A stretch of 64,000 nt of DNA. Origin: Roseospira goensis. Its GTDB lineage: Bacteria > Pseudomonadota > Alphaproteobacteria > Rhodospirillales > Rhodospirillaceae. Where the stretch lies: assembly GCF_014197795.1 (NCBI RefSeq), contig NZ_JACIGI010000003.1:1-64000 (forward strand). Reading direction: 5' to 3'. How positions within the stretch are numbered: position 1 is the first letter of the stretch; every line of letters starts with the position of its first letter. Below the pieces are notes generated by a model. It was not told where the DNA came from and made no database searches. It was given only the letters and a program-made list of their open reading frames with translations. A program made the translations under genes and the position numbers. Positions 27,808 to 62,699 of the stretch are shown one piece after another.

Positions 27808-27865
27808 CCCCCTTGCCCCCCTCTGGTTCGTCCGTCGCCGTGGTCGGCTTGTATGGTCGTGTTCT

Positions 27866-27933
27866 GGTGTCTTCCGTCTACCGGTGTCTTTCGTCTACCG
27901 GTGTCTTTCGTCTACCGGTGTCTTCCGTCGGCC
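27866..27933. repeat. Four tandem 17-bp repeats
   Basis: Four head-to-tail copies of the 17-base unit GGTGTCTTTCGTCTACC occupy 27866-27882, 27883-27899, 27900-27916 and 27917-27933. The middle two are identical, the first differs at one base and the last at three. There are no spacers, so this is a minisatellite-like array and not CRISPR. It lies between divergent genes. Confidence 0.9.
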
Positions 27934-27950
27934 GATCCCGCCACGCCGAA

Positions 27951-28005
27951 CCATACGGTACCGTTTGGAATCGGGGTTCCATACGGTACCGTCTGGATGT
28001 ACGAT
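27951..28005 (+). promoter_or_regulatory. Paired palindromic operator-like sites upstream of the thioesterase
   Basis: The 14-base sequence CCATACGGTACCGT occurs twice, at 27951-27964 and 27979-27992, exactly 28 bases apart. Each contains the perfect palindrome ACGGTACCGT. The second site lies between a weak TTCCAT (27977) and TACGAT (28000) spaced by 17 bases, a plausible promoter for the thioesterase gene 41 bases downstream. Two palindromes on nearly the same DNA face resemble TetR-type operator pairs. The regulator is not in the window. Confidence 0.5.
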
Positions 28006-50774: not shown

Positions 50775-51501
50775 CGCGGCCCCAGATCCGGAGCCGACCA
50801 CGACCGGGCGCGTCCCGGCGCCCGTTCTGGTCTCGATCCACGACGTGATGCCGGCCACCCTGCCCCAGGTCGCGACGCTGCTGGATCTGCTCGACCGTGC
50901 CGGCGCCGGACCGGTCGATCTGCTGGTCGTGCCGGGCCTGGACTGGCCGGCGTCCGACCTGGCCACGCTGCGCGACTGGAGCCGTGCCGGGCACCGGCTC
51001 GCCGGGCACGGCTGGCGGCATCGCGCCGACCGCATCCGGGGACCGTGGCACCGGCTGCACAGCCTCTTGATCTCGCGCGACGTGGCGGAGCACCTGGCCC
51101 TCGACGGTGACGGCATCGCCGACCTGATCGCCCGCTGCCACGCCTGGTTTGCCGCCCACGACCTGCCCGCGCCCCGCCTGTACGTCCCGCCGGCCTGGGC
51201 GCTGGGGGCGATCCCGCGGGACCGGCTCGCCACCCTGCCCTTCGCGCGGTACGAGGTCTTCACCGGCCTCATCGACGCCGCGACGGGACGTTGGCGGCCG
51301 GTGCCCATGGTGGGCTTCGAGGCCGATACGGTCGCGCGGGTCTGGCCCGTGCGGCTCTGGAACGCGCTCAATCGCGGCCACGCCCGGGCCTGGCGCACCC
51401 CCCTGCGGATCGCCATCCACCCCCACGACCTGTCGTATCGGCTGGGGGACGACCTGCGCCGCACCATCGCCACCCTGCCCGTCCGGCCGGCCCCGGCGTA
51501 G
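50767..51501 (+). CDS. DUF2334 polysaccharide deacetylase-like protein
   Basis: A 244-residue protein of the DUF2334 branch of carbohydrate-esterase-4-like deacetylases. The signature is VLVSIHDVMPATLPQVATLL, with DLLVVPGLDWPASDL, HRLAGHGWRHRAD and LRIAIHPHDLSYRLG. These place the His/Asp metal ligands. It has no signal peptide, so it probably acts in the cytosol on an intermediate made by the neighbouring glycosyltransferase. Its TAG stop is the first triplet of the palindromic repeat element that follows. Confidence 0.8.
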   Translation: MHDAAPDPEPTTTGRVPAPVLVSIHDVMPATLPQVATLLDLLDRAGAGPVDLLVVPGLDWPASDLATLRDWSRAGHRLAGHGWRHRADRIRGPWHRLHSLLISRDVAEHLALDGDGIADLIARCHAWFAAHDLPAPRLYVPPAWALGAIPRDRLATLPFARYEVFTGLIDAATGRWRPVPMVGFEADTVARVWPVRLWNALNRGHARAWRTPLRIAIHPHDLSYRLGDDLRRTIATLPVRPAPA

Positions 51502-51635
51502 AGCGGAACGCCCGAATACGGACTCGCATGGTGATTTCGAATTCGGGCGTTCCGCTCTGAAACCAACAGATCGCGCCGAGTCACGCTCGAAATCGGCCCC
51601 ACCCCGGTGGTTCCGATTTCGAGCGATCGGCGCTA
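51499..51635 (+). repeat. Palindromic MITE-like element, copy A
   Basis: A 137-base element made of two stem-loops. The first has perfect 18-base arms starting AGAGCGGAACGCCCGAAT (51500-51517, 51541-51558) with a 23-base loop. The second has perfect 13-base arms (51584-51596, 51613-51625). The element begins TAG and ends CTA, with imperfect terminal inverted repeats (TAGAGCGGAAC against TAGCGCCGATC, 8 of 11). It supplies the stop codon of the deacetylase. The same sequence is present in inverted orientation at 62549-62699. No transposase is encoded. Confidence 0.85.
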
Positions 51636-51700
51636 GTGCACTTTCGATCCAGACAAAAGATGCAACCTGCATTCTTTTGTCTGGATCGAAAGTGCACTAG
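51633..51700. repeat. 68-bp near-perfect hairpin element
   Basis: Perfect 28-base arms at 51633-51660 and 51673-51700 flank a 12-base centre that pairs further (TGCA with TGCA) around a single bulged base. The ends read CTAGTGCAC and GTGCACTAG. It abuts copy A of the palindromic element but is absent from copy B, so it is a separate unit. It lies between convergent genes and may act as a terminator or be a small mobile palindrome. Confidence 0.85.
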
Positions 51701-51714
51701 AAACAGTGTTTTGT

Positions 51715-51760
51715 GCAGCGACATTTGCTTTCAAAGGGAATCCCTTGAAAGCGTCGCTGC
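51715..51760. terminator. Hairpin between convergent genes
   Basis: Outer arms GCAGCGAC/GTCGCTGC (51715-51722, 51753-51760) and inner arms GCTTTCAA/TTGAAAGC (51727-51734, 51745-51752) form one long interrupted stem. It lies 24 bases past the stop of the minus-strand transferase gene. Bidirectional termination is inferred from position. Confidence 0.5.
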
Positions 51761-51784
51761 CCTAGGCCGCGGCCGGCGCCGTCC

Positions 51785-52399
51785 TCAGCGGCCCGGGTCG
51801 TACTTGGCGCAGAAGGCCGCGATCTCCAGGTGCCGGAAGTCGTCCAGCGCCGCGCCAAGGGCATCGTGCGACCAGTCCCACCAGCGGATGCGCGCCAGGG
51901 CGGCGGCGATATCCTCCGAAAAGCGGCGACGCACGGGCCGGGCGGGAACACCGGCCACGATGGTGTAGGCCGGCACATCGCGGGAGACCACCGCGCCCGC
52001 GGCCAGCACGGCCCCGTCACCCACGGCCACCCCCGGCAGCACGGTCACGCCGTGCCCGATCCACACGTCGTGCCCGATGGTCACGGGCGATGCCCGCCGC
52101 CAGGCGAAGAACGCCGCCTCCGCCGCCCCCAGGCCGTACTGGTCGGCGCGGTAGGTGACATGGTGCTGGGTGGCCCGCTGCATCGGATGATTGCCCGGAT
52201 TGAGGCGACAGTGGGCGGCGATGGAACAGAACTTCCCGATGGTCGTGTGGTCGGCCTGGCCGTCGTTACAGATGTAGCTGTAGTCGCCCAGCGTGACGCC
52301 GCTCAGGGTGACCCGCGCCTGCACCTCCGTCCATCGGCCCAAGACGCAGTCGTGAAGCCGTGCCGTGGCGTCGACGGTGGGTGTTTCGGACAACGTCAT
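51785..52399 (-). CDS. Hexapeptide-repeat transferase, phosphonate-associated
   Basis: A 204-residue left-handed beta-helix acyltransferase of the TIGR03308 type, found almost only in phosphonate gene clusters. Markers are [60 protein letters not shown] and [20 protein letters not shown], then [20 protein letters not shown]. It probably acetylates or otherwise modifies a phosphonate, but the substrate is not established. AGGAGG lies nine bases before ATG 52399. It is divergent from phnC, sharing a 304-base regulatory region. Confidence 0.87.
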
Positions 52400-52512
52400 C
52401 GGCGTGGGCCTCCTGTCGGTCTCCATGATGCTCTCCGGCGATACGCGAAGCAAAGGGGCATGAAAAGGCCGGTACTATACGCCGGAATACAGTACGGCAA
52501 GTCGTGGTGGCC

Positions 52513-52530
52513 ATGACAATTGTATGACCG
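52513..52530. promoter_or_regulatory. Pho-box-like PhoB binding site
   Basis: On the minus strand two half-sites, CGGTCAT and TTGTCAT, are separated by four bases. This fits the PhoB consensus CTGTCAT-N4-CTGTCAT with one mismatch per half-site. It lies in the 304-base region between the hexapeptide transferase and phnC, where phosphate control is expected. The rest of that region has a GTACTATA/ATACAGTAC imperfect inverted repeat near 52471-52495 and no gene. Match and spacing are seen directly; PhoB binding is inferred. Confidence 0.6.
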
Positions 52531-52703
52531 ACGCGTTACACGACGGTTTCACGTTCGTGTCGGGAGCATGAAGTTACGGTCACGCCTTCTGCCCAGTCTT
52601 TATTTTCAGAGGCGCCTTGCTAGTCTCGCGGCGGTCGGGAGGCGTCGGGTTCGCGCCGCTCCTCGACTGCTCGCCCGCGACCCGGACAGACTCGAGGACA
52701 GGC

Positions 52704-53531
52704 ATGCGCGTCATCGACCTCAACAAGACATTCGGATCCGTCATGGCCGTCAAATCGGCCAGCTTCGACGTTCCGGGCGCGCAGATGATTGGCGTGATCG
52801 GACGCTCCGGTGCCGGCAAGTCGACCCTGCTGCGCATGATCAACCACCTGACGCCGGCGACATCGGGCAGCATCCTGATCGACGGTCGCGATATCCTGGC
52901 GTTGCGCGGCGCCGCCCGTCATGCCTGGCAGCGCGACTGCGCGATGATCTTTCAGCAGTTCAATCTGGTGCCGCGCCTGGACGTGCTGACCAACGTCATG
53001 CTGGGGCGCCTGAACCGTCACGGCACCCTGCGCAGCCTGCTCAAGGTGTTCGGCCGCGAGGACATCGCCCGCGGCCTGCATGCCCTGGAGCGGCTCGGCA
53101 TCGCCGACCAAGCCCTGAAGCGGGCCGAGGACCTGTCGGGCGGACAGCAACAGCGTGTCGCGATCGCCCGCGCGCTGACCCAGGACCCGCGCATGATCCT
53201 GGCGGACGAGCCCATCGCCTCGCTGGATCCGATGAGCGCCCAGGTCGTGATGGACTCCCTGCGCCAGATCCACGAGCGCGACGGCCTCACGGTCATCTGC
53301 AATCTGCACACCCTGGACACCGCCCGCACCTACTGTGACCGCGTCATCGGCATGCGCGACGGCGCGATCGTCTACGACGGCCCGGCGCACGCCGTGACCA
53401 CGGACGTGGCCCGCGACATCTACGGCGCAGACGACTCGTTCAACGAAGGCGTGACCTCGACCGTGCTGGAGCCCGACGACCGGCGCGCGGCCGAGGTCGC
53501 CTACCTGCGCGCGGCCGAGGCCGGCGCCTGA
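52704..53531 (+). CDS. phnC: Phosphonate ABC transporter ATP-binding protein PhnC
   Basis: A 275-residue ABC ATPase. Walker A is GRSGAGKS (residues 33-40), the Q-loop is in [20 protein letters not shown], the signature is LSGGQQQR, and Walker B is [13 protein letters not shown]. The segments [20 protein letters not shown] and [20 protein letters not shown] are PhnC-specific. It energises uptake by PhnE1/PhnE2 of phosphonate bound by PhnD. The start ATG 52704 has GAGGACAGG upstream. A hairpin separates it from phnD. Confidence 0.95.
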
Positions 53532-53543
53532 CCCCTCTTCCAC

Positions 53544-53573
53544 GCGGTCCCGGGCAGCGCGACGCGGGACCGC
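53544..53573 (+). other. Intergenic hairpin between phnC and phnD
   Basis: Perfect eight-base arms GCGGTCCC (53544-53551) and GGGACCGC (53566-53573) form a stem in the 80-base phnC-phnD gap. There is no T-run, so it more likely sets relative mRNA stability than ends transcription. Confidence 0.4.
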
Positions 53574-53611
53574 TTCCTCCGAACCCCGTCGAGACTTCCA
53601 AGGAGGCTCCC

Positions 53612-54550
53612 GTGACCCTGACCCTGTCCCTGAAGGCGGCCGCCGCGTCGACCGCCGTTCTGCTGGCCACCACCGCCCTGGTGCCGGCGTCCGCCGTCGC
53701 CCAGGACGCGACCATCGACGAGTTCCGCATCGGCATCATGGGCGGCGAGAACGCCTCGGACCGCCTGCGCTCCAACGAATGCCTGCGCACCAAGATCGAA
53801 GACCTGCTGGGGGTCGAGACCAAGCTGTTCGCGCCGGCCGACTACAACGGCGTGATCGAGGGTCTGATCGGCGGCAACCTCGACCTGGCCTGGCTGGGCG
53901 CCTCGGGCTACGCCAAGACCTACCTGGAGGACCCGGAGGCGGTCGAGCCCGTGCTGGTGAAGATCAACACCGACGGCAGCTACGGCTACCACTCGATCGG
54001 CTTCGCCCGCGCCGACAGCGGCATCACGGCGCTGGAGGACATGGAGGGCAAGGTGTTCGCCTTCGGCGACCCGAACTCCACCTCGGGCTACCTCATCCCG
54101 TCCATCGAGATCCCGCAGGCCGGCTACGCCATGGAACCCGGCGAATACTTCGGCGACGTGGTCTTCTCGGGTGGCCATGAGCAGACCATCGTCGGTGTGT
54201 ACAACGGCGACTACGACGCCGGCGTCACCTGGGCCGACGGCCTGGGCGAGTGGGAGGACGGCTTCAACAGCGGCGCCTTCCGCAAGGCCGTGGACGCCGG
54301 CCTTGTCGACATGACCGAGCTGGTCGAGATCTGGCGCTCCAACGTGATCCCCGAGGGGCCGATCGTGCTACGCAAGAGCCTGCCGGCGGACGTGAAGGAG
54401 AAGGTCACGGCAATGATCGACGACCTCGTCAACACCGACGCCGAATGCGCGTACCAGTTCATGGCCGGCGAGATCAAGGACATCGACCCGATCGGCCACG
54501 ACGCCTACGTCAGCGTCATCGAGGCCCGCAAGGCAAAGATGGGCAACTGA
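53612..54550 (+). CDS. phnD: Phosphonate-binding periplasmic protein PhnD
   Basis: A 312-residue periplasmic solute-binding protein. The signal peptide ends around PASAVAQ, then FRIGIMGGENASDRLRSNEC, LFAPADYNGVIEGLIGGNLD and LAWLGASGYAKTYLEDPEAV, then KVFAFGDPNSTSGYLIPSIE. These are classic PhnD segments that cradle the phosphonate group. The GTG start is preceded by AGGAGG. Family members bind 2-aminoethylphosphonate tightly, which fits the PhnX pathway upstream. Confidence 0.95.
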   Translation: MTLTLSLKAAAASTAVLLATTALVPASAVAQDATIDEFRIGIMGGENASDRLRSNECLRTKIEDLLGVETKLFAPADYNGVIEGLIGGNLDLAWLGASGYAKTYLEDPEAVEPVLVKINTDGSYGYHSIGFARADSGITALEDMEGKVFAFGDPNSTSGYLIPSIEIPQAGYAMEPGEYFGDVVFSGGHEQTIVGVYNGDYDAGVTWADGLGEWEDGFNSGAFRKAVDAGLVDMTELVEIWRSNVIPEGPIVLRKSLPADVKEKVTAMIDDLVNTDAECAYQFMAGEIKDIDPIGHDAYVSVIEARKAKMGN

Positions 54551-54563
54551 TCACCGCGACACC

Positions 54564-54601
54564 GACCGGCCGGGGAGTGGGCGCCGACCGCTCCCCGGTC
54601 G
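54564..54601 (+). other. Intergenic hairpin between phnD and phnE1
   Basis: CCGGGGAG (54570-54577) pairs with CTCCCCGG (54591-54598), with further pairs outside, in the 109-base gap. Such hairpins after a binding-protein gene often raise its expression over the permease genes. That role is inferred. Confidence 0.4.
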
Positions 54602-54659
54602 TGTCACGGTCGCCCTCCCCCTGGTCCGGACACGCCCCGTCCCGCATGGTCGCCCCCGC

Positions 54660-55517
54660 ATGGTCGCCGTTTCCCAACATGAAAGCATCGTCCAGCTTGA
54701 ACAGCGCCGCCGCGCCTATTCGCTGCTGACGATCCTCGTCGTTGTCCTGATCCTGGTCACCGGATACACGCAGGCGGAGTCGATGAACTCCGGCGGGTTC
54801 CTGACCGGCTTGCGCCAGTTCTTCGACTATCCCGGTGACATCCTGGAGGAGGCCTGGGCCGAGGGCTGGGCCTTCTGGGGCATCGTCTGGGGGTTCCTGC
54901 CGGCGCTGGTCGAGACGCTCAACATCGCCGCCACCGCCACCATCCTGGGCGGCGTGCTGGCGATGGTGTTTGCGTTTCTCAGCACCCGTTCCCTGGACGT
55001 CTGGCCGCCCCTGATCCCGGTTTCGCGCCGCCTGATGGACGTGATGCGGGCCTTCCCGGAGCTGATCCTCGCGCTGTTCCTGATCTTCGTGCTGGGCGCC
55101 AGTTCGGTGCCGGCGATGATCGCGGTCGCGTTTCACACCATCGGCGCGCTCGGCAAGCTGTTCTCGGAGGTCAACGAGAACATCGACCGCCGCCCGGTGG
55201 AGGGCCTCCAGGCGGTCGGCGCCAGCTGGCTGCAACGGCTGCGCTTCGGCGTGCTGCCCCAGGTGCTCCCCAACTACACCAGTTATTTTCTGATGCGGTT
55301 CGAAATCAATGTGCGGGCCTCCGCCATCCTCGGTTTTGTCGGGGCTGGTGGCCTGGGGGCCGAGCTACGCCGGACCATCGGCTGGGGCAGCGGTGAGGAG
55401 ACCGCCGCCCTGTTGCTGCTGCTGTTCGCGTCCATCATGGTGATCGATCAGGTCTCCGGCATGGTCCGGCGGGGCCTCGTGACCGGCACCCTGCGGGCCA
55501 AACGGGTGCCGGCATGA
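54660..55517 (+). CDS. phnE: Phosphonate ABC transporter permease PhnE1
   Basis: A 285-residue inner-membrane permease. It has one helix near residues 20-38, then the binding-protein-dependent transport fold with ALVETLNIAATATILGGVLA, FPELILALFLIFVLGASSVP, the EAA-like loop VEGLQAVGASWLQRLRFGVL, and ILGFVGAGGLGAELRRTIGW. It overlaps the second permease by four bases, giving a heterodimeric channel. The ATG at 54660 has only a weak ribosome site. Confidence 0.93.
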   Translation: MVAVSQHESIVQLEQRRRAYSLLTILVVVLILVTGYTQAESMNSGGFLTGLRQFFDYPGDILEEAWAEGWAFWGIVWGFLPALVETLNIAATATILGGVLAMVFAFLSTRSLDVWPPLIPVSRRLMDVMRAFPELILALFLIFVLGASSVPAMIAVAFHTIGALGKLFSEVNENIDRRPVEGLQAVGASWLQRLRFGVLPQVLPNYTSYFLMRFEINVRASAILGFVGAGGLGAELRRTIGWGSGEETAALLLLLFASIMVIDQVSGMVRRGLVTGTLRAKRVPA

Positions 55518-56908
55518 GCACTCCACCGGCCCCCCTGGCCTTCCCCCTGGCCTTCCCCCTGGCCTTCGACGCCGACGCCGTCATGGCGCGCCACGTCGAC
55601 GCCGTGCGCCACGTCCGGCGCGGCAGCTTGATCGGCCTCGCGGGCCTGCTCGCGGTGCTGGCCTACCTGGTCTATGCGTGGTTCGCCTTCGACATCCCGC
55701 GCCTGATCGCCACCGCCGAGCCGCAGCGCGCCGTCCTGCTGGCCACCGACGCGGTGGCGCACAAGGTTCACGTGACCAAGGGCCTGCGCAATCCCGGCTT
55801 CGAGGTCGCCGTGGAGGGCGAGCGCACGGCGACCTACGACACCCCGCCCGCCTGGGTCGAGGCCGATACCGCCGGCGACCGGGTCATCGTCGATCTGGGC
55901 GACGGCTACAGCGCCCGCATTGATGGCGCCGTTCTGACCCTGACCGGACCCGACACGGCGCCGATCCGCGTGGAAGCGACCGACCGAGGGGTGCGCATCG
56001 ACTATCGCGGCGCGCGGCCGGACTGGGTGACCGAGGGCGTCAACGTCAAGACCGGCAGCCTTGTGAAGTTCGAGGCCCGTCCCAGCATCGACAAGCGGGT
56101 GCAGGTGACCCGATCCAAGATCGAGATCCACCGCTATTTCTTCGGCTGGGAGAATTTCTGGTTCCCGTTCGACTCGCCGCTGCACGGCCTCTCGCTCGGG
56201 GCGCTGGTCGAGCTGGCCCTGTCCGGGGACCGTATCGACCCGGACCGCTCCAACGTGGCCACCATCTTCGACACCTTCTGGTCGAACCCGGAATGGCAGC
56301 ACCGCACGGTCTTCATCGCTTTGCTGGAAACCGTGCTGATGGCGGTGCTGGGCACCCTGACCGCGGCCTTCGTGGGCCTGCCGCTGGCCTTCGCCGCCGC
56401 CCACACGTTCAACCGGATCGCGGTGATCCGGTTCGCGCTGCGCCGGCTGTTCGATTTCCTGCGCGGCATCGACATGCTGATCTGGTCGCTGATCTTCATC
56501 CGCGCCTTCGGCCTGGGGCCGCTCACGGGGGCGCTGGCGATCGCCTTCACCGACACCGGCACGCTGGGCAAGCTGTTCTCCGAGACCCTGGAGAACATCG
56601 ACAGGAAGCAGGTGGAGGGCGTCCAGGCCACCGGCGCCAACCGCTGGCAGCGCTACCGGTTCGGCGTGATCCCCCAGATCCTGCCGGTGTTCGTCTCCCA
56701 GGGCCTGTACTACCTGGAATCCAACATGCGCTCGGCCACCGTGATCGGCGCCCTTGGCGCCGGCGGCATCGGGCTCGTGCTGGTGGAGACCATGCGCACC
56801 TCCCGCGACTGGGAGAACACGCTCTACATCATCATCCTGACCATCCTCCTGGTGGTGGCCATGGATGCGCTGTCCGGCTGGCTGCGCCGCCGCCTGATCC
56901 AGGGCTGA
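55514..56908 (+). CDS. phnE: Phosphonate ABC transporter permease PhnE2, long form
   Basis: A 464-residue permease, much longer than PhnE1. After a first helix (about residues 36-60) comes a periplasmic region of about 200 residues rich in beta strands (for example VDLGDGYSARIDGAVLTLTG). The transport domain follows, with TVLMAVLGTLTAAFVGLPLA, the EAA loop VEGVQATGANRWQRYRFGVI and VIGALGAGGIGLVLVETMRT. The N-terminus has a 12-base tandem repeat coding LAFP-LAFP-LAF. Long PhnE2 proteins are known in alphaproteobacteria; the function of the extra domain is unclear. Confidence 0.9.
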   Translation: MSTPPAPLAFPLAFPLAFDADAVMARHVDAVRHVRRGSLIGLAGLLAVLAYLVYAWFAFDIPRLIATAEPQRAVLLATDAVAHKVHVTKGLRNPGFEVAVEGERTATYDTPPAWVEADTAGDRVIVDLGDGYSARIDGAVLTLTGPDTAPIRVEATDRGVRIDYRGARPDWVTEGVNVKTGSLVKFEARPSIDKRVQVTRSKIEIHRYFFGWENFWFPFDSPLHGLSLGALVELALSGDRIDPDRSNVATIFDTFWSNPEWQHRTVFIALLETVLMAVLGTLTAAFVGLPLAFAAAHTFNRIAVIRFALRRLFDFLRGIDMLIWSLIFIRAFGLGPLTGALAIAFTDTGTLGKLFSETLENIDRKQVEGVQATGANRWQRYRFGVIPQILPVFVSQGLYYLESNMRSATVIGALGAGGIGLVLVETMRTSRDWENTLYIIILTILLVVAMDALSGWLRRRLIQG

Positions 56909-56945
56909 CGCCCCGGTGGCGGCCCCGCTCCCCTGGGTGGGGTCG

Positions 56946-59456
<2,511 letters not shown>

Positions 59457-59559
59457 GTCTGTCCGCTCCTCCCCAATCCCGACGGGACGCCGTCGTCGCC
59501 GGCCCTCTCACCCTACTCCCGACGGCGCCGGCGTTCAGCCAAAACGTGGCCCGGCCCCC

Positions 59560-60084
59560 TCAAAGCCGGGGCGCGCCCGGGACATGGTAGGCGTCCAGCG
59601 CCGCGCGCACATCCGCCGGCAGCGGCTGGGAGCGACCAGCGTTGGTGTCGGCCCAGACGCACACGCTCTCGGCGGCCCCGAAGCAGCGTTCACCGATGAA
59701 CAGGCCCTGGCCGATGATGCAGGAGGTGCGCCCGATATGCACGATCCGCGAGCCGATCTCCACATCGGCCGGATAGCGCGCCTCGGCGACGAAATCGAGC
59801 ACCAGCCGGGCGATCACCCAGCCGACGCCGGCGCCGGCCGTGGCGCCGGGGTTGAGGGTCTCCAGGAAGTCCACCCGTCCGGACTCGAGGTAGATCGCGA
59901 ACGAGACGTTGTTGACGTGACCCAGCCGGTCGAGGTCCTGGAACCGCACGATGTCACGGGTCCAGAACCGGTAGGCCGACCGCTCGCGCGCCCCGGGACT
60001 TGCGGCGGCGGGCGTGCCGTCCCCGGTCTCCATGCCCTCGGGGGCGCACGGCAGGGGACGGCGGCAGGGGAGACGGCTCGGCAT
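59560..60084 (-). CDS. 4HBT acyl-CoA thioesterase
   Basis: A 174-residue hotdog-fold thioesterase of the YbgC/4-hydroxybenzoyl-CoA type. The motif FQDLDRLGHVNNVSFAIYLE has the catalytic Asp/His/Asn set, followed by RLVLDFVAEARYPADVEIGS and IGQGLFIGERCFGAAESVCV. ATG 60084 has GAGGG seven bases upstream, although the conserved domain starts about 38 residues later. An ATG at 60033 is an alternative. It is divergent from the creatininase gene and lies 103 bases upstream of glgP on the same strand. Confidence 0.87.
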   Translation of the reverse strand: MPSRLPCRRPLPCAPEGMETGDGTPAAASPGARERSAYRFWTRDIVRFQDLDRLGHVNNVSFAIYLESGRVDFLETLNPGATAGAGVGWVIARLVLDFVAEARYPADVEIGSRIVHIGRTSCIIGQGLFIGERCFGAAESVCVWADTNAGRSQPLPADVRAALDAYHVPGAPRL

Positions 60085-60175
60085 CGCAGACCCTCGGCGA
60101 TTGGGGTTGTCGGGCCGGTGCTTCCGCTCTAGACCGGCGCCCGATCATTACCCCCGGATCGGGAGGCCCCGCAAC

Positions 60176-60922
60176 GTGCTCCTGCACCTGTCCACGTGGC
60201 CCGAGGTGGACCGCTACCTCGCGCACCGTCAGTCCATCATCCTGCCCATCGGTTCCACCGAGCAGCACGGCCCCACCGGCCTGATCGGCACCGACGCCAT
60301 CACCGCCGAAGCCATCGCCAAGGTCGTCGGCGAGCAGACCGGCACCCTGGTCGGCCCGACCATCCCGGTCGGGATGGCGCACCACCACATGGGCTTTCCC
60401 GGCAGCATGACGCTGCGGCCGAGCACGCTGATCCAGGTGATCCGCGACTCCGTGCTGTCCCTGGCCGCGCACGGCTTCCGGTCGGTGCTGTTCATCAACG
60501 GCCACGGCGGCAACATCAACACCGTCAACGCCGCCTTCTACGAGATCTACGAAGAGGCCCGCGCCACCCTCGGCGACGCGGCGCCGGCGCTGCGCTGCGC
60601 CCTGTGTAGCTGGTTTGCGCTGCCCGGCGTCGGTGCCCTCCAGGCCGAGCTGTTCGGCGACCGCGAGGGCCTGCATGCCACCCCCAGCGAGGTGTCCGTC
60701 ACCCAGGCCGTCCATCCCGACCACATCAAGACGGCGTCGCTGGATCCGATCGCGCCCACGGCCGGTGCCTTCCACGACTCGCGCGACTTCCGGGCCCGGT
60801 TCCCCGACGGCCGGATGGGCGCGGATCCGTCGCTGGCGACTCCGGAGCACGGCCATCGCTTCATTGCGGCCGCGGCGGCCGAGATCGCCGAGCGCTATGG
60901 CGAGTTCCTGGCCGGCGCGTGA
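60176..60922 (+). CDS. Creatininase family protein
   Basis: A 248-residue metal-dependent amidohydrolase of the creatininase family. Metal ligands lie in IILPIGSTEQHGPTGLIGTD, PVGMAHHHMGFPGSMTL, VLFINGHGGNINTVNAAFYE and DREGLHATPSEVSVTQAVHP. Family members hydrolyse creatinine, formylamides or act in cofactor pathways, and the substrate here is unknown. The GTG start has GGAGG nine bases upstream. It overlaps azlC by four bases (GTGA). Confidence 0.9.
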   Translation: MLLHLSTWPEVDRYLAHRQSIILPIGSTEQHGPTGLIGTDAITAEAIAKVVGEQTGTLVGPTIPVGMAHHHMGFPGSMTLRPSTLIQVIRDSVLSLAAHGFRSVLFINGHGGNINTVNAAFYEIYEEARATLGDAAPALRCALCSWFALPGVGALQAELFGDREGLHATPSEVSVTQAVHPDHIKTASLDPIAPTAGAFHDSRDFRARFPDGRMGADPSLATPEHGHRFIAAAAAEIAERYGEFLAGA

Positions 60923-61701
60923 CCGTCATGCGGGAGGTGACGCTCCAGGACGGCCCTGACGGCTACGGAACGCGCGGCGCCGCCCTGAGGGCCGGCGCGC
61001 GCGCGGCCGTGGGGGCGCCCGCCGTCGTGCTGGCGGCCAGCTACCTGGGGTTCGGTGCCCTGGTGCGCTCCGCGGACTGGAGCCTGCCCCTGGGCCTGAT
61101 GTCGACCGCGCTCGGCTTCGCGCTGCCCGGCCAGATCGTGGTGGTCGAGATGGCGGCGGCGGGCGCCTCGCTGGCCCTGATCGCGGCGGCGGTGGCGTTG
61201 ACAAACTTCCGGCTCATGCCGATGACGCTGGTGCTGATGGGCCGGCTGCGGGCGCCGGACACCCCGCGCTGGTGGCTGTACGCGCTGGCCCACGTGATCG
61301 CGGTGACGAGCTGGCTGGTGGCGTTGCAGCGGGCGCCGCGCCTGCCGCTGGCCGAGCGGCTGCCGTTCGTGGCCGGGTTCTCCGTCGTCATCTGGGCCGT
61401 CACGCTGACCGCCACGGCGGTTGGCTTCTGGCTGCACGAGCAGGTCCCGCCGCTGGTGTCGCTGGCGCTGGTGTTCCTGACGCCGCTGTACTTCCTTCTG
61501 ATGATGGTGGCCGACCTGCGCCAGCGGGCGCGGGTCTACGCCATGGTCGCGGGGACGCTGGCGGGACCACCGCTCCACCTGCTGACGCCGGAGTGGGGCC
61601 TAGTGCTGACCGGGGTTCTGGCCGGCACCCTGGCCTTCGGGCTCGATCGCCGGGCGGCACGGCGCGCCGCCCCCACCGACGCGGACCCTGGCGATGTCTG
61701 A
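60919..61701 (+). CDS. azlC: AzlC family transporter subunit
   Basis: A 260-residue polytopic membrane protein, the large subunit of an AzlCD-type exporter for branched-chain amino acids or similar compounds. AzlC hallmarks are AASYLGFGALVRSADWSLPL, STALGFALPGQIVVVEMAAA and ALTNFRLMPMTLVLMGRLRA. The GTG at 60919 overlaps the creatininase stop; ATG 60928 is an alternative start. azlD follows with an eight-base overlap. Confidence 0.9.
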   Translation: MTVMREVTLQDGPDGYGTRGAALRAGARAAVGAPAVVLAASYLGFGALVRSADWSLPLGLMSTALGFALPGQIVVVEMAAAGASLALIAAAVALTNFRLMPMTLVLMGRLRAPDTPRWWLYALAHVIAVTSWLVALQRAPRLPLAERLPFVAGFSVVIWAVTLTATAVGFWLHEQVPPLVSLALVFLTPLYFLLMMVADLRQRARVYAMVAGTLAGPPLHLLTPEWGLVLTGVLAGTLAFGLDRRAARRAAPTDADPGDV

Positions 61702-62035
61702 GGGTCTGGCGACCGGCGGGGCGGTGGCGGCAATCCTGGTCGGCGCGGCCGTGACCTATGGCTGGCGGGCACTCGGGACAGCCCTGGCCGGACGGCTGCG
61801 CGCCGACAGCGCGGTCATGCAGTGGGCGGGCTGCGTCGCCCATGCCCTGCTCGCCGGACTGCTGGCGCGCATGGTCGTGCTGCCGGTCGGACCGCTGGAA
61901 GAGACCGCGGTGTGGGCGCGGCTGGCCGGGGTGGCGGTCGGCGTCGCCGTGTTCTTCGCCCTGCGGCGCAACGTGCTGCTGGGCGTGGGCGCCGGCGCCG
62001 CCACTCTGATGGCGGCGACCTGGGCCACGGGCTGA
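61694..62035 (+). CDS. azlD: AzlD family transporter subunit
   Basis: A 113-residue small membrane protein with four hydrophobic segments, the AzlD partner of AzlC. AAILVGAAVTYGWRALGTAL and WAGCVAHALLAGLLARMVVL match the family. It overlaps azlC by eight bases, so the two subunits are made together. Transport direction and substrate are not shown by the sequence. Confidence 0.88.
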   Translation: MSEGLATGGAVAAILVGAAVTYGWRALGTALAGRLRADSAVMQWAGCVAHALLAGLLARMVVLPVGPLEETAVWARLAGVAVGVAVFFALRRNVLLGVGAGAATLMAATWATG

Positions 62036-62098
62036 GTCCGCGCCAGAGCGGGAAATCGGGCGGCCTGTGGTCTTCACCGGCCGCGCCGGCGTTCCCAT

Positions 62099-62551
62099 AT
62101 GCGCGTCATGAACAGGATCATGCCCCACACCCGCCCCGCCGGTTCCCGTGCCTCCGACGGCGGGCCGGCCCTGACGACCTACTACAACGGGGCCTGTCCG
62201 ATCTGCCGGACAGAGATCGAGCACTACCAGGGCGTGGACCAGCGTCACGACGTCGGCCTGGCCTGGCAGGACGTGAGTCAGGGTGTCGGCGGCCTCGCCA
62301 TTCACGGCATCGACCCCGACACCGCGACCCGGCGCCTGTACGCGATCGACGCCCACGGCCACCTCCACGCCGGCGTCGATGCCTTCATTCTGGTGTGGTC
62401 GCAGTTGCCGGGCTATCGCTGGCTGGCCCGGGTGGTGGCCCTGCCCGGGGTGCGGCAACTGGCCGGGGTCGTCTACGAGGGTGTGCTGGCGCCCTTGCTT
62501 TACCGCTGGAACCGCTGGCGGCGTCACCGGGCTGCCGGGAACGGGCGATAG
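62099..62551 (+). CDS. DCC1-like thiol-disulfide oxidoreductase
   Basis: A 150-residue protein of the DUF393/DCC family. The signature is TTYYNGACPICRTEIEHYQG with the CPIC thiol pair. LAWQDVSQGVGGLAIHGIDP and VWSQLPGYRWLARVVALPGV with a basic tail follow. The family is thought to act as thioredoxin-like oxidoreductases. The start is ATG 62099 or ATG 62108. Its TAG stop (62549-62551) is the first triplet of repeat copy B, mirroring the situation at copy A. Confidence 0.85.
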   Translation: MRVMNRIMPHTRPAGSRASDGGPALTTYYNGACPICRTEIEHYQGVDQRHDVGLAWQDVSQGVGGLAIHGIDPDTATRRLYAIDAHGHLHAGVDAFILVWSQLPGYRWLARVVALPGVRQLAGVVYEGVLAPLLYRWNRWRRHRAAGNGR

Positions 62552-62699
62552 CGCCGATCGCTCGAAATCGGAACCCCCGGGGTGGGGCCGATTTCGAGCG
62601 TGACTCGGCGCGATCTGTTGGTTTCAGACTGTTGGTTTCAGAGCGGAACGCCCGAATTCGAAATCACCATGCGAGTCCGTATTCGGGCGTTCCGTTCTA
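62549..62699 (-). repeat. Palindromic MITE-like element, copy B
   Basis: This is the inverted copy of the element at 51499-51635, nearly identical base for base, including both loops. It is 14 bases longer because CTGTTGGTTTCAGA is tandemly duplicated at 62615-62628 and 62629-62642. Only a few substitutions separate the copies, for example one in the 18-base arm and one in the second loop. Like copy A it supplies the stop codon of the gene it follows. Confidence 0.85.

What the first reader, a model, noticed from the sequence alone, without database searches (positions are those of the whole stretch)
51499..62699. Inverted pair of palindromic MITE-like elements bracketing the phn/glgP/azl region
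A 137-bp element with two perfect stem-loops (18- and 13-bp arms) ends the deacetylase gene. It reappears about 11 kb away in opposite orientation as a 151-bp copy with one 14-bp duplication. Both loops, which have no pairing reason to be conserved, are essentially identical, so the copies are recent or under selection. In each case the element end supplies the TAG stop of the upstream gene, and the ends look like weak terminal inverted repeats with TA at the border. This suggests a non-autonomous mobile element, or a structured RNA, whose two copies could drive inversion of the phosphonate region.
Basis: partly seen in the sequence, partly recalled or inferred. Interest (0 to 1): 0.7.

Follow-up and report, generated by a model that had tools for sequence, protein, structure and literature searches.

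The report
Mobile hairpin repeats with methylation sites
Two matching DNA hairpin elements in a purple bacterium belong to a family of small transposon-like repeats that has spread through its genome, and each carries conserved sites for the enzyme that marks DNA as the cell divides.

Summary
The 137-bp element (51499-51635) and its 151-bp inverted copy (62549-62699) are two of 21 full-length copies in this draft genome, with 19 partial or chimaeric ones. At least four related families share one plan: TA-hairpin-linker-hairpin-TA. Copy 2 is absent at its place in 6 of 6 same-genus genomes, copy 1 in the only colinear one. The genus is Rhodospira/Roseospira. The ends resemble those of IS630-type insertion sequences of the bacterial family, so these look like IS630/Tc1-mariner-type MITEs, although no IS630 transposase was found in this genome. 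Each family-A hairpin carries one GANTC site (CcrM methylase): across 21 copies the two most variable columns are exactly the two N positions, and the eight other GANTC columns never vary. This resembles Caulobacter CIR repeats, whose mobility a 2007 review leaves unexplained. Inversion of the phosphonate region is not supported.

The parts
51499..51635 (+). element family A, copy 1 (137 bp): TA-hairpin-linker-hairpin-TA
   Evidence: 21 full-length copies in own genome
51500..51558 (+). left hairpin of copy 1 (18 perfect pairs)
51573..51633 (+). right hairpin of copy 1 (7 + 13 pairs with a 4-nt bulge)
51521..51525 (.). GANTC site 1 of copy 1 (GACTC), in the loop region of the left hairpin
   Evidence: retained in 21 of 21 copies, N is C in 12 and A in 9
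51578..51582 (.). GANTC site 2 of copy 1 (GAGTC), overlapping the bulge of the right hairpin
   Evidence: retained in 20 of 21 copies, N is G in 12 and T in 8; the remaining copy has a deletion there
51634..51764 (+). element family D (131 bp), second two-hairpin element, sharing TA 51634-51635 with copy 1
   Evidence: about 40 places with D in G037
51738..51742 (.). GANTC site of the D element (GAATC)
   Evidence: a GANTC is present in 19 of 26 distinct D copies examined
62549..62699 (-). element family A, copy 2 (151 bp, 14-bp tandem duplication in the linker)
   Evidence: absent at this place in 6 of 6 same-genus genomes
62673..62677 (.). GANTC site 1 of copy 2
   Evidence: L048
62602..62606 (.). 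GANTC site 2 of copy 2
   Evidence: L048
62099..62551 (+). reading frame (150 aa) whose stop TAG is the end of copy 2

Best explanation
The elements are members of a mosaic family of small non-autonomous transposons (MITEs), each built as TA-hairpin-linker-hairpin-TA. They insert at TA dinucleotides, most likely duplicating the TA, and are most likely moved in trans by an IS630/Tc1-mariner-type transposase that recognises ends of the form TAgaGC.GAT. Shown: multicopy dispersal, TA borders, bursts limited to single species, absence at orthologous places in relatives, and end similarity to IS630 elements of the same bacterial family. Inferred: the IS630 helper (none was found in this genome, so it would have been lost, unassembled, or supplied from elsewhere) and the exact TA duplication. 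Each family-A hairpin carries one GANTC site held fixed except at N. The likely meaning is that CcrM methylation of these sites matters to the element, for example by tying transposition to the hemimethylated state just after replication; this step is inferred, not shown. Because the element begins with TAG, an insertion at the TA of a stop codon restores a stop, which would explain why both window copies end a gene (inferred).
For: 21 full copies plus 19 partial ones in the own genome. In 74 genomes of the bacterial family, matches in 5, all in this genus of 7 genomes; outside the own genome one copy is near full length (G036, 133 of 137 bases) (at most 11 candidates scored per genome). TA at left, right and both ends in 17, 20 and 17 of 21 copies. 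Copy 2 absent at its place in 6 of 6 relatives, copy 1 in the one colinear relative. Three A copies lie inside X hairpins, two of these within C-type elements; removing the insert and one TA leaves G(T/C)CGC(G/A)ATAATCGGCTG, and the GATA form exists uninterrupted in 3 of 29 own arms. 21 of 27 IS630 loci with a readable transposase C-terminus have TAGAGC 15-18 bases after it. Element ends match IS630 ends better than 2000 of 2000 control draws, and better than 4990 of 5000 shuffles when only bases 7-18 are scored. GANTC: the N columns rank 1 and 2 of 137 in entropy; fixed letters changed in 0 of 166 cells. A CcrM homologue is present.
Against: No IS630 transposase was found in the own genome by Pfam model or by protein. 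In G037, where family D is abundant, IS630 matches to the 221-residue query span at most 73 residues. No element end is identical to an IS end: the best match is 13 of 16 after TA, and it is to a fragmentary IS630 copy in G036 (L403). TAGAGC is not unique to IS630: an IS5-type element of G036 (L086) also has ends beginning TTAGAGCC and TAAGAGCC, though it matches the element ends less well (5-8 of 16, against 9-13). Family D prefers CTAG and its ends fit IS630 poorly (9-10 of 16). 19 of 29 uninterrupted X arms lack the extra bases, so the nested insertions fit a TA duplication but do not prove it. The sites in relatives are too diverged to read a single TA. GANTC is less well kept in family D (19 of 26 copies).
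Confidence: 0.67

Rival explanations
1. The elements are MITEs moved by another DDE transposase with a TA or CTAG target, such as an IS5-group enzyme, not by IS630.
For: IS5-family transposases are present in the own genome (L090) and in G037 (L085, L091, L292), while IS630 was not found in the own genome. One IS5-type element in G036 (L086) has ends beginning TTAGAGCC and TAAGAGCC, sharing TAGAGC with several element ends. Family D copies in G037 sit at C-TA-G: C before in 13 of 14 and G after in 13 of 13 copies read. I raised this rival slightly (0.20 to 0.22) after rereading.
Against: Beyond TAGAGC the L086 ends match the element ends poorly (5-8 of 16). The terminal repeats found for L292 (GGGCACCTCG) are different, and for L085 and L091 no convincing terminal repeat was found. 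Family A has no CTAG rule: the base before TA is C in 7 of 17. IS630 ends match better than controls.
Confidence: 0.22
2. The elements are REP/REPIN-type repeats mobilised by a RAYT tyrosine transposase.
For: Paired hairpins, and one Y1 transposase in the genome.
Against: That Y1 gene is flanked by its own GTAGGTTGGGGTGAGCG repeat and not by these elements. The GTAG tag is absent: the base before TAG is G in 1 of 17 copies. Both ends carry TA, and stems are longer than in REPs (5-13 bp in GTAG families; passages of PMC3733652).
Confidence: 0.04
3. The elements are host-domesticated CcrM-responsive regulators or RNA hairpins (terminators, mRNA stabilisers), kept for function rather than by transposition.
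For: GANTC conservation with free N, about ten-fold enrichment over the genome (2 per 137 bp in family A against 1.46 per kb), very stable folds, one B-type copy directly after ccrM itself.
Against: Copy places are not shared with relatives, one species amplifies A and another D, and copies sit inside other copies, all of which point to mobility. Regulation could still be a by-product.
Confidence: 0.2
4. The two copies act as an invertible pair that flips the 11-kb phosphonate region.
For: Inverted orientation and near identity.
Against: Gene order across each element is the ancestral one in every relative where it can be read: 1 of 1 for copy 1, 6 of 6 for copy 2. There are 19 other full copies that could pair equally well.
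Confidence: 0.03

Closest known systems
[quoted passage not shown] known here only through passages of PMC2229807 and PMC10969869)
   Same: Two long inverted-repeat arms joined by a linker, conserved GANTC at or partly in a loop, TA at the termini, alphaproteobacterial, repeated.
   Different: 131-151 bp rather than about 110 bp. Here terminal repeats resembling IS630 ends, absence at orthologous places and single-species bursts are seen, whereas the 2007 review lists CIR without terminal inverted repeats, with target duplication unknown and mobility unexplained. No CIR sequence was available to compare letter by letter.
RUP of Streptococcus pneumoniae (proposed IS630-Spn1 MITE; passages of PMC2229807 and PMC10969869)
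   Same: 107 bp, TA target, ends matching an IS630 element, found inserted in IS elements and other repeats.
   Different: Not described in those passages with two hairpins, a linker or GANTC sites.
ERIC/IRU and Correia/NEMIS (passages of PMC2229807)
   Same: Short, highly palindromic, TA at the ends, proposed MITEs.
   Different: One long stem-loop formed by the two ends, not two independent hairpins; different hosts.
RIME and Bru-RS repeats of Rhizobiales (recalled; not seen described in any call)
   Same: About 100-bp elements with two palindromes, mosaic exchange of modules.
REP/REPIN (PMC3733652 passages)
   Same: Palindromic, dispersed, found as pairs.
   Different: The GTAG tag, short stems and RAYT association are lacking here.

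Membership tests
MITE (non-autonomous DNA transposon) | short, many dispersed copies, no transposase gene inside | tested here: met
   21 full copies of about 137 bp, too short to hold a transposase
MITE (non-autonomous DNA transposon) | terminal inverted repeats | tested here: met
   TAGAGCGGAACGC against TAGCGCCGATCGC, 10 of 13 by eye (sequences); imperfect
MITE (non-autonomous DNA transposon) | target-site duplication | tested here: inconclusive
   TA at both ends in 17 of 21; nested sites fit a TA duplication but 19 of 29 uninterrupted arms lack the extra bases
MITE (non-autonomous DNA transposon) | empty orthologous places | tested here: met
   copy 2 absent in 6 of 6 relatives; copy 1 absent in the single colinear one
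IS630-derived MITE | ends shared with an IS630 element | tested here: inconclusive
   above 2000 of 2000 controls, and 4990 of 5000 on inner bases, but best match 13 of 16, to a fragmentary IS630; an IS5 (L086) shares TAGAGC too
IS630-derived MITE | helper transposase in the same genome | tested here: not met
   0 matches in own draft genome
CIR | two arms and a linker | tested here: met
CIR | conserved GANTC at a loop | tested here: met
   site 2 lies at a bulge, not a terminal loop
CIR | host CcrM | tested here: met
   RAMA domain in 7 of 7 genus genomes; own protein matches CcrM structure 6pbd at E 1.5e-156
CIR | sequence homology to CIR1-4 | not testable with these tools
   original paper not held; no CIR sequence at hand
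CIR | strictly intergenic | tested here: inconclusive
   my gene caller was unreliable and is not used; both window copies begin at the stop of a reading frame
REP/REPIN | GTAG tag | tested here: not met
   G before TAG in 1 of 17
REP/REPIN | flanks a RAYT gene | tested here: not met
   the one Y1 gene found has a different repeat

The most novel reading that the evidence does not exclude
CIR-type repeats are IS630/Tc1-mariner-class MITEs whose movement is gated by CcrM: the GANTC sites in both hairpins are kept because hemimethylation after the fork passes licenses, or full methylation blocks, transposase action, so that these elements jump at a set point of the alphaproteobacterial cell cycle, as Dam controls some IS elements in enterobacteria (the Dam case is recalled).
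Probability: 0.25. Interest if true: 0.7.

Novelty: new variant of a known kind. Interest (0 to 1): 0.5.

Why it matters
A 2007 review leaves open how CIR repeats move and what their GANTC sites are for (PMC2229807 passages). Here one genus offers several related families with recent bursts, unoccupied places in relatives, a candidate transposase class and a clean pattern of constraint on the methylation site, so both questions become directly testable.

Tried and rejected
Tried without result: exact 22-base right-end pattern in genome contigs, 0 hits, with the tool's note that the window's own or very near records may be left out; plasmids, no match; Rfam, 4 hits all well below their gathering scores; the single Y1 transposase, which has its own REP; IS4/IS5-type transposases of the genus: most have ends unlike the elements or no clear ends, but L086 of G036, an IS5 type, begins TTAGAGCC and TAAGAGCC, which I count against the IS630 reading; a DDE_Tnp_1 gene next to D fragments in G037, which proved to be an IS1380 with D in or before its frame, not a helper; a scan for element ends outside known copies, which gave many weak matches and no helper; family B in 318 genomes of the order, where outside the genus only 21-26-base matches appear, with at most two candidates scored per genome. 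A home-made gene caller put the glycogen phosphorylase on the wrong strand, so its context counts are not used. Reading-frame lengths before the TAG ends gave no clear general rule beyond the two window copies. Literature listings; none of the titles and abstract starts shown links CIR or GANTC repeats to IS630; the library covers open-licence papers only.

Corrections made on rechecking: one search counted 14 full A copies in the 2.02-Mb set, of which one was a palindrome artefact (13); one search counted the window's D copy twice (26 distinct copies). I lowered the best explanation from 0.70 to 0.67 and raised the IS5 rival to 0.22 because of L086.
Full report
What is there. The two elements are at the stated coordinates. 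Copy 1 is 51499-51635 (+) and copy 2 is 62549-62699 (-); copy 2 has a 14-bp tandem duplication in the linker. Copy 1 folds into two independent hairpins joined by a linker of 13-14 bases, with z-scores of -9.6 and -8.8 on the two strands. Both ends are TAG...CTA. In both cases the upstream reading frame ends on that TAG. Directly after copy 1, sharing its terminal TA, lies a second two-hairpin element, 51634-51764 (family D), with a 28-bp perfect stem and z-score -14.7.

How many. A search of the own draft genome (4.18 Mb, 81 contigs) gave 97 BLAST matches, many of them one hairpin matching itself in reverse. I fetched 40 places; 21 hold full-length copies and 19 hold partial or chimaeric ones. 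Among 74 genomes of the bacterial family, 5 have matches, all in this genus of 7 genomes; outside the own genome only one copy is near full length (G036, 133 of 137 bases, at most 11 candidates scored per genome). That copy's left flank has no match in the own stretches tested and its right flank only one weak, partial match, so it is probably not at an orthologous place. Contig lengths identify relatives as Rhodospira trueperi (G036), Roseospira visakhapatnamensis (G037), R. marina (G032), R. navarrensis (G033) and an uncultured Rhodospira (G035); the window is from an unnamed member of this group.

A mosaic superfamily. In 2.02 Mb of own sequence I found A (13 full), B and its variant Bb (9 and 7 full), C (10 full) and D (1 full), plus 47 partial pieces, at 74 places in all when pieces within 200 bp are merged. 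The full ones read have two hairpins and a linker, bordered by TA in most. Modules are shared: the X hairpin is the left half of B and the right half of C; the V hairpin is the right half of B and Bb and is related to the right half of A. The species differ in what they amplify: A in the own genome, D in G037 with about 40 distinct places by my count of the list (only 40 of 65 candidates scored there). The own genome has one intact D, one nearly full D at 81% identity and two partial ones.

Mobility. At the copy-2 place the flanking genes are the same in 6 of 6 same-genus genomes and lie 114-170 bp closer together, without the element (distances; alignment). The copy-1 place is readable in one relative only, G035, and lacks both A and D there. 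These flanks are too diverged to show a single TA. Within the own genome three A copies lie in X hairpins at the same spot, two of them within C-type elements; two face one way and one the other, so at least two events occurred (sequences). Taking out the insert and one TA leaves G(T/C)CGC(G/A)ATAATCGGCTG; the GATA form exists uninterrupted in 3 of 29 own arms, while 19 of 29 have the shorter GTCGCAATCGGCTG, so a TA duplication is likely but not proven. TA borders both ends in 17 of 21 A copies.

Helper. The Y1 transposase of the genome is flanked by another repeat. IS630 elements of the bacterial family were collected with one transposase (matches in 23 of 74 genomes). Of the 30 loci that call saved, 27 had a readable C-terminus, and 21 of those have TAGAGC 15-18 bases after it (a few loci are neighbours or copies of one another); L077 shows both ends with TA. 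Nine element ends, two of them identical, were compared with 20 distinct IS630 ends: summed best score 96, against a control mean of 67.9 and a maximum of 86 in 2000 draws of other TA-starting 18-mers from the same loci. Since the IS630 ends had been picked by TAGAGC, I repeated the test with eight ends on bases 7-18 only: 58 against a mean of 45.9, reached by 10 of 5000 shuffles; without D, 45 against 34.5, reached by 21 of 5000. The best single case is C-left with an IS630 end of G036, 10 of 12 inner bases, but that IS630 is a fragment (L403). Against the IS630 reading: none was found in the own genome; an IS5-type element of G036 (L086) also begins TTAGAGCC and TAAGAGCC, though it matches only 5-8 of 16 bases; and family D fits poorly and favours CTAG (C before TA in 13 of 14, G after in 13 of 13).

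GANTC. The consensus of 21 A copies contains GACTC at position 23 and GAGTC at 80. These two N columns have the highest and second-highest entropy of all 137 columns (chance of that pair 1 in 9316). The fixed letters changed in 0 of 166 cells, N in 17 of 41, other unpaired columns in 14 of 650, paired columns in 53 of 2016. All four combinations of the two N letters occur among the 18 copies my pattern could read (7, 4, 4 and 3), so this is not simply one pair of master copies. In the other families the N columns rank 2 and 73 of 138 (B), 12, 3 and 20 of 139 (Bb), 28, 2 and 44 of 141 (C) and 8 of 129 (D, 26 distinct copies; 9 with one copy counted twice). All eleven together give Fisher p about 6e-6 (with D at 9), though shared modules make them not fully independent. 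Fixed letters changed in 9 of 441 cells for A, B, Bb and C together (summed) but in 14 of 104 for D, so D is a weaker case: 7 of 26 D copies lack the site. GANTC is otherwise depleted in this genome (0.59 of expectation, 1.46 per kb, in the 2.02-Mb set). Each of the 7 genus genomes has one RAMA-domain match, and the own protein matches CcrM. A B-type element lies directly after ccrM and supplies its TAG stop.

Comparison. The plan (two arms, linker, GANTC at a loop, TA at the ends, alphaproteobacteria) is that of CIR as described in passages of PMC2229807 and named in passages of PMC10969869. The 2007 review lists CIR without terminal repeats, with target duplication unknown and mobility unexplained. 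The original CIR paper is not held. What the present data add is the mobility side: ends resembling IS630, unoccupied places in relatives and single-species bursts.

Inversion. Across copy 1 the order is the same in G035. Across copy 2 it is the same in 6 of 6 relatives. In G033, G035 and G036 the phn and glgP blocks lie on different contigs. Nothing points to flipping of the segment.

Noticed in passing
window 51634-51764: A second two-hairpin element (family D) abuts copy 1; its closest relatives are in G036 and G037 (about 90%), not the other own copies (about 80%).
   Followed up: yes
L420:1912-2048: A B-type element lies directly after the ccrM homologue and provides its stop codon.
   Followed up: partly
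L075:1278-1380: The only Y1 (RAYT-like) transposase found in the genome has a GTAGGTTGGGGTGAGCG repeat of its own.
   Followed up: partly
L287:1984-2101 and L288:2990-3107: In G037 two copies of an IS1380-type transposase gene carry a D element inside or at the start of the reading frame; the two regions are 93% alike over 1.8 kb, so the IS seems to have moved with it.
   Followed up: partly
L105:10231-10330, L107:11032-11312, L113:13159-13309: A separate repeat family of CCCACGCGGGAGCGTGGG hairpins in small clusters.
   Followed up: no
window 27857-27941: A 17-bp unit repeated in tandem, followed by an inverted repeat at 27951-27996.
   Followed up: no
window 56908-56946: The phn cluster and the glgP block adjoin here but lie on different contigs in G033, G035 and G036, so the junction may be specific to this species.
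   Followed up: partly
L086:1029-1967: An IS5-type element of G036 with ends TTAGAGCC and TAAGAGCC, sharing TAGAGC with the hairpin elements.
   Followed up: partly
L293-L306: D copies in G037 sit in CTAG: C before TA in 13 of 14 and G after in 13 of 13 copies read.
   Followed up: partly
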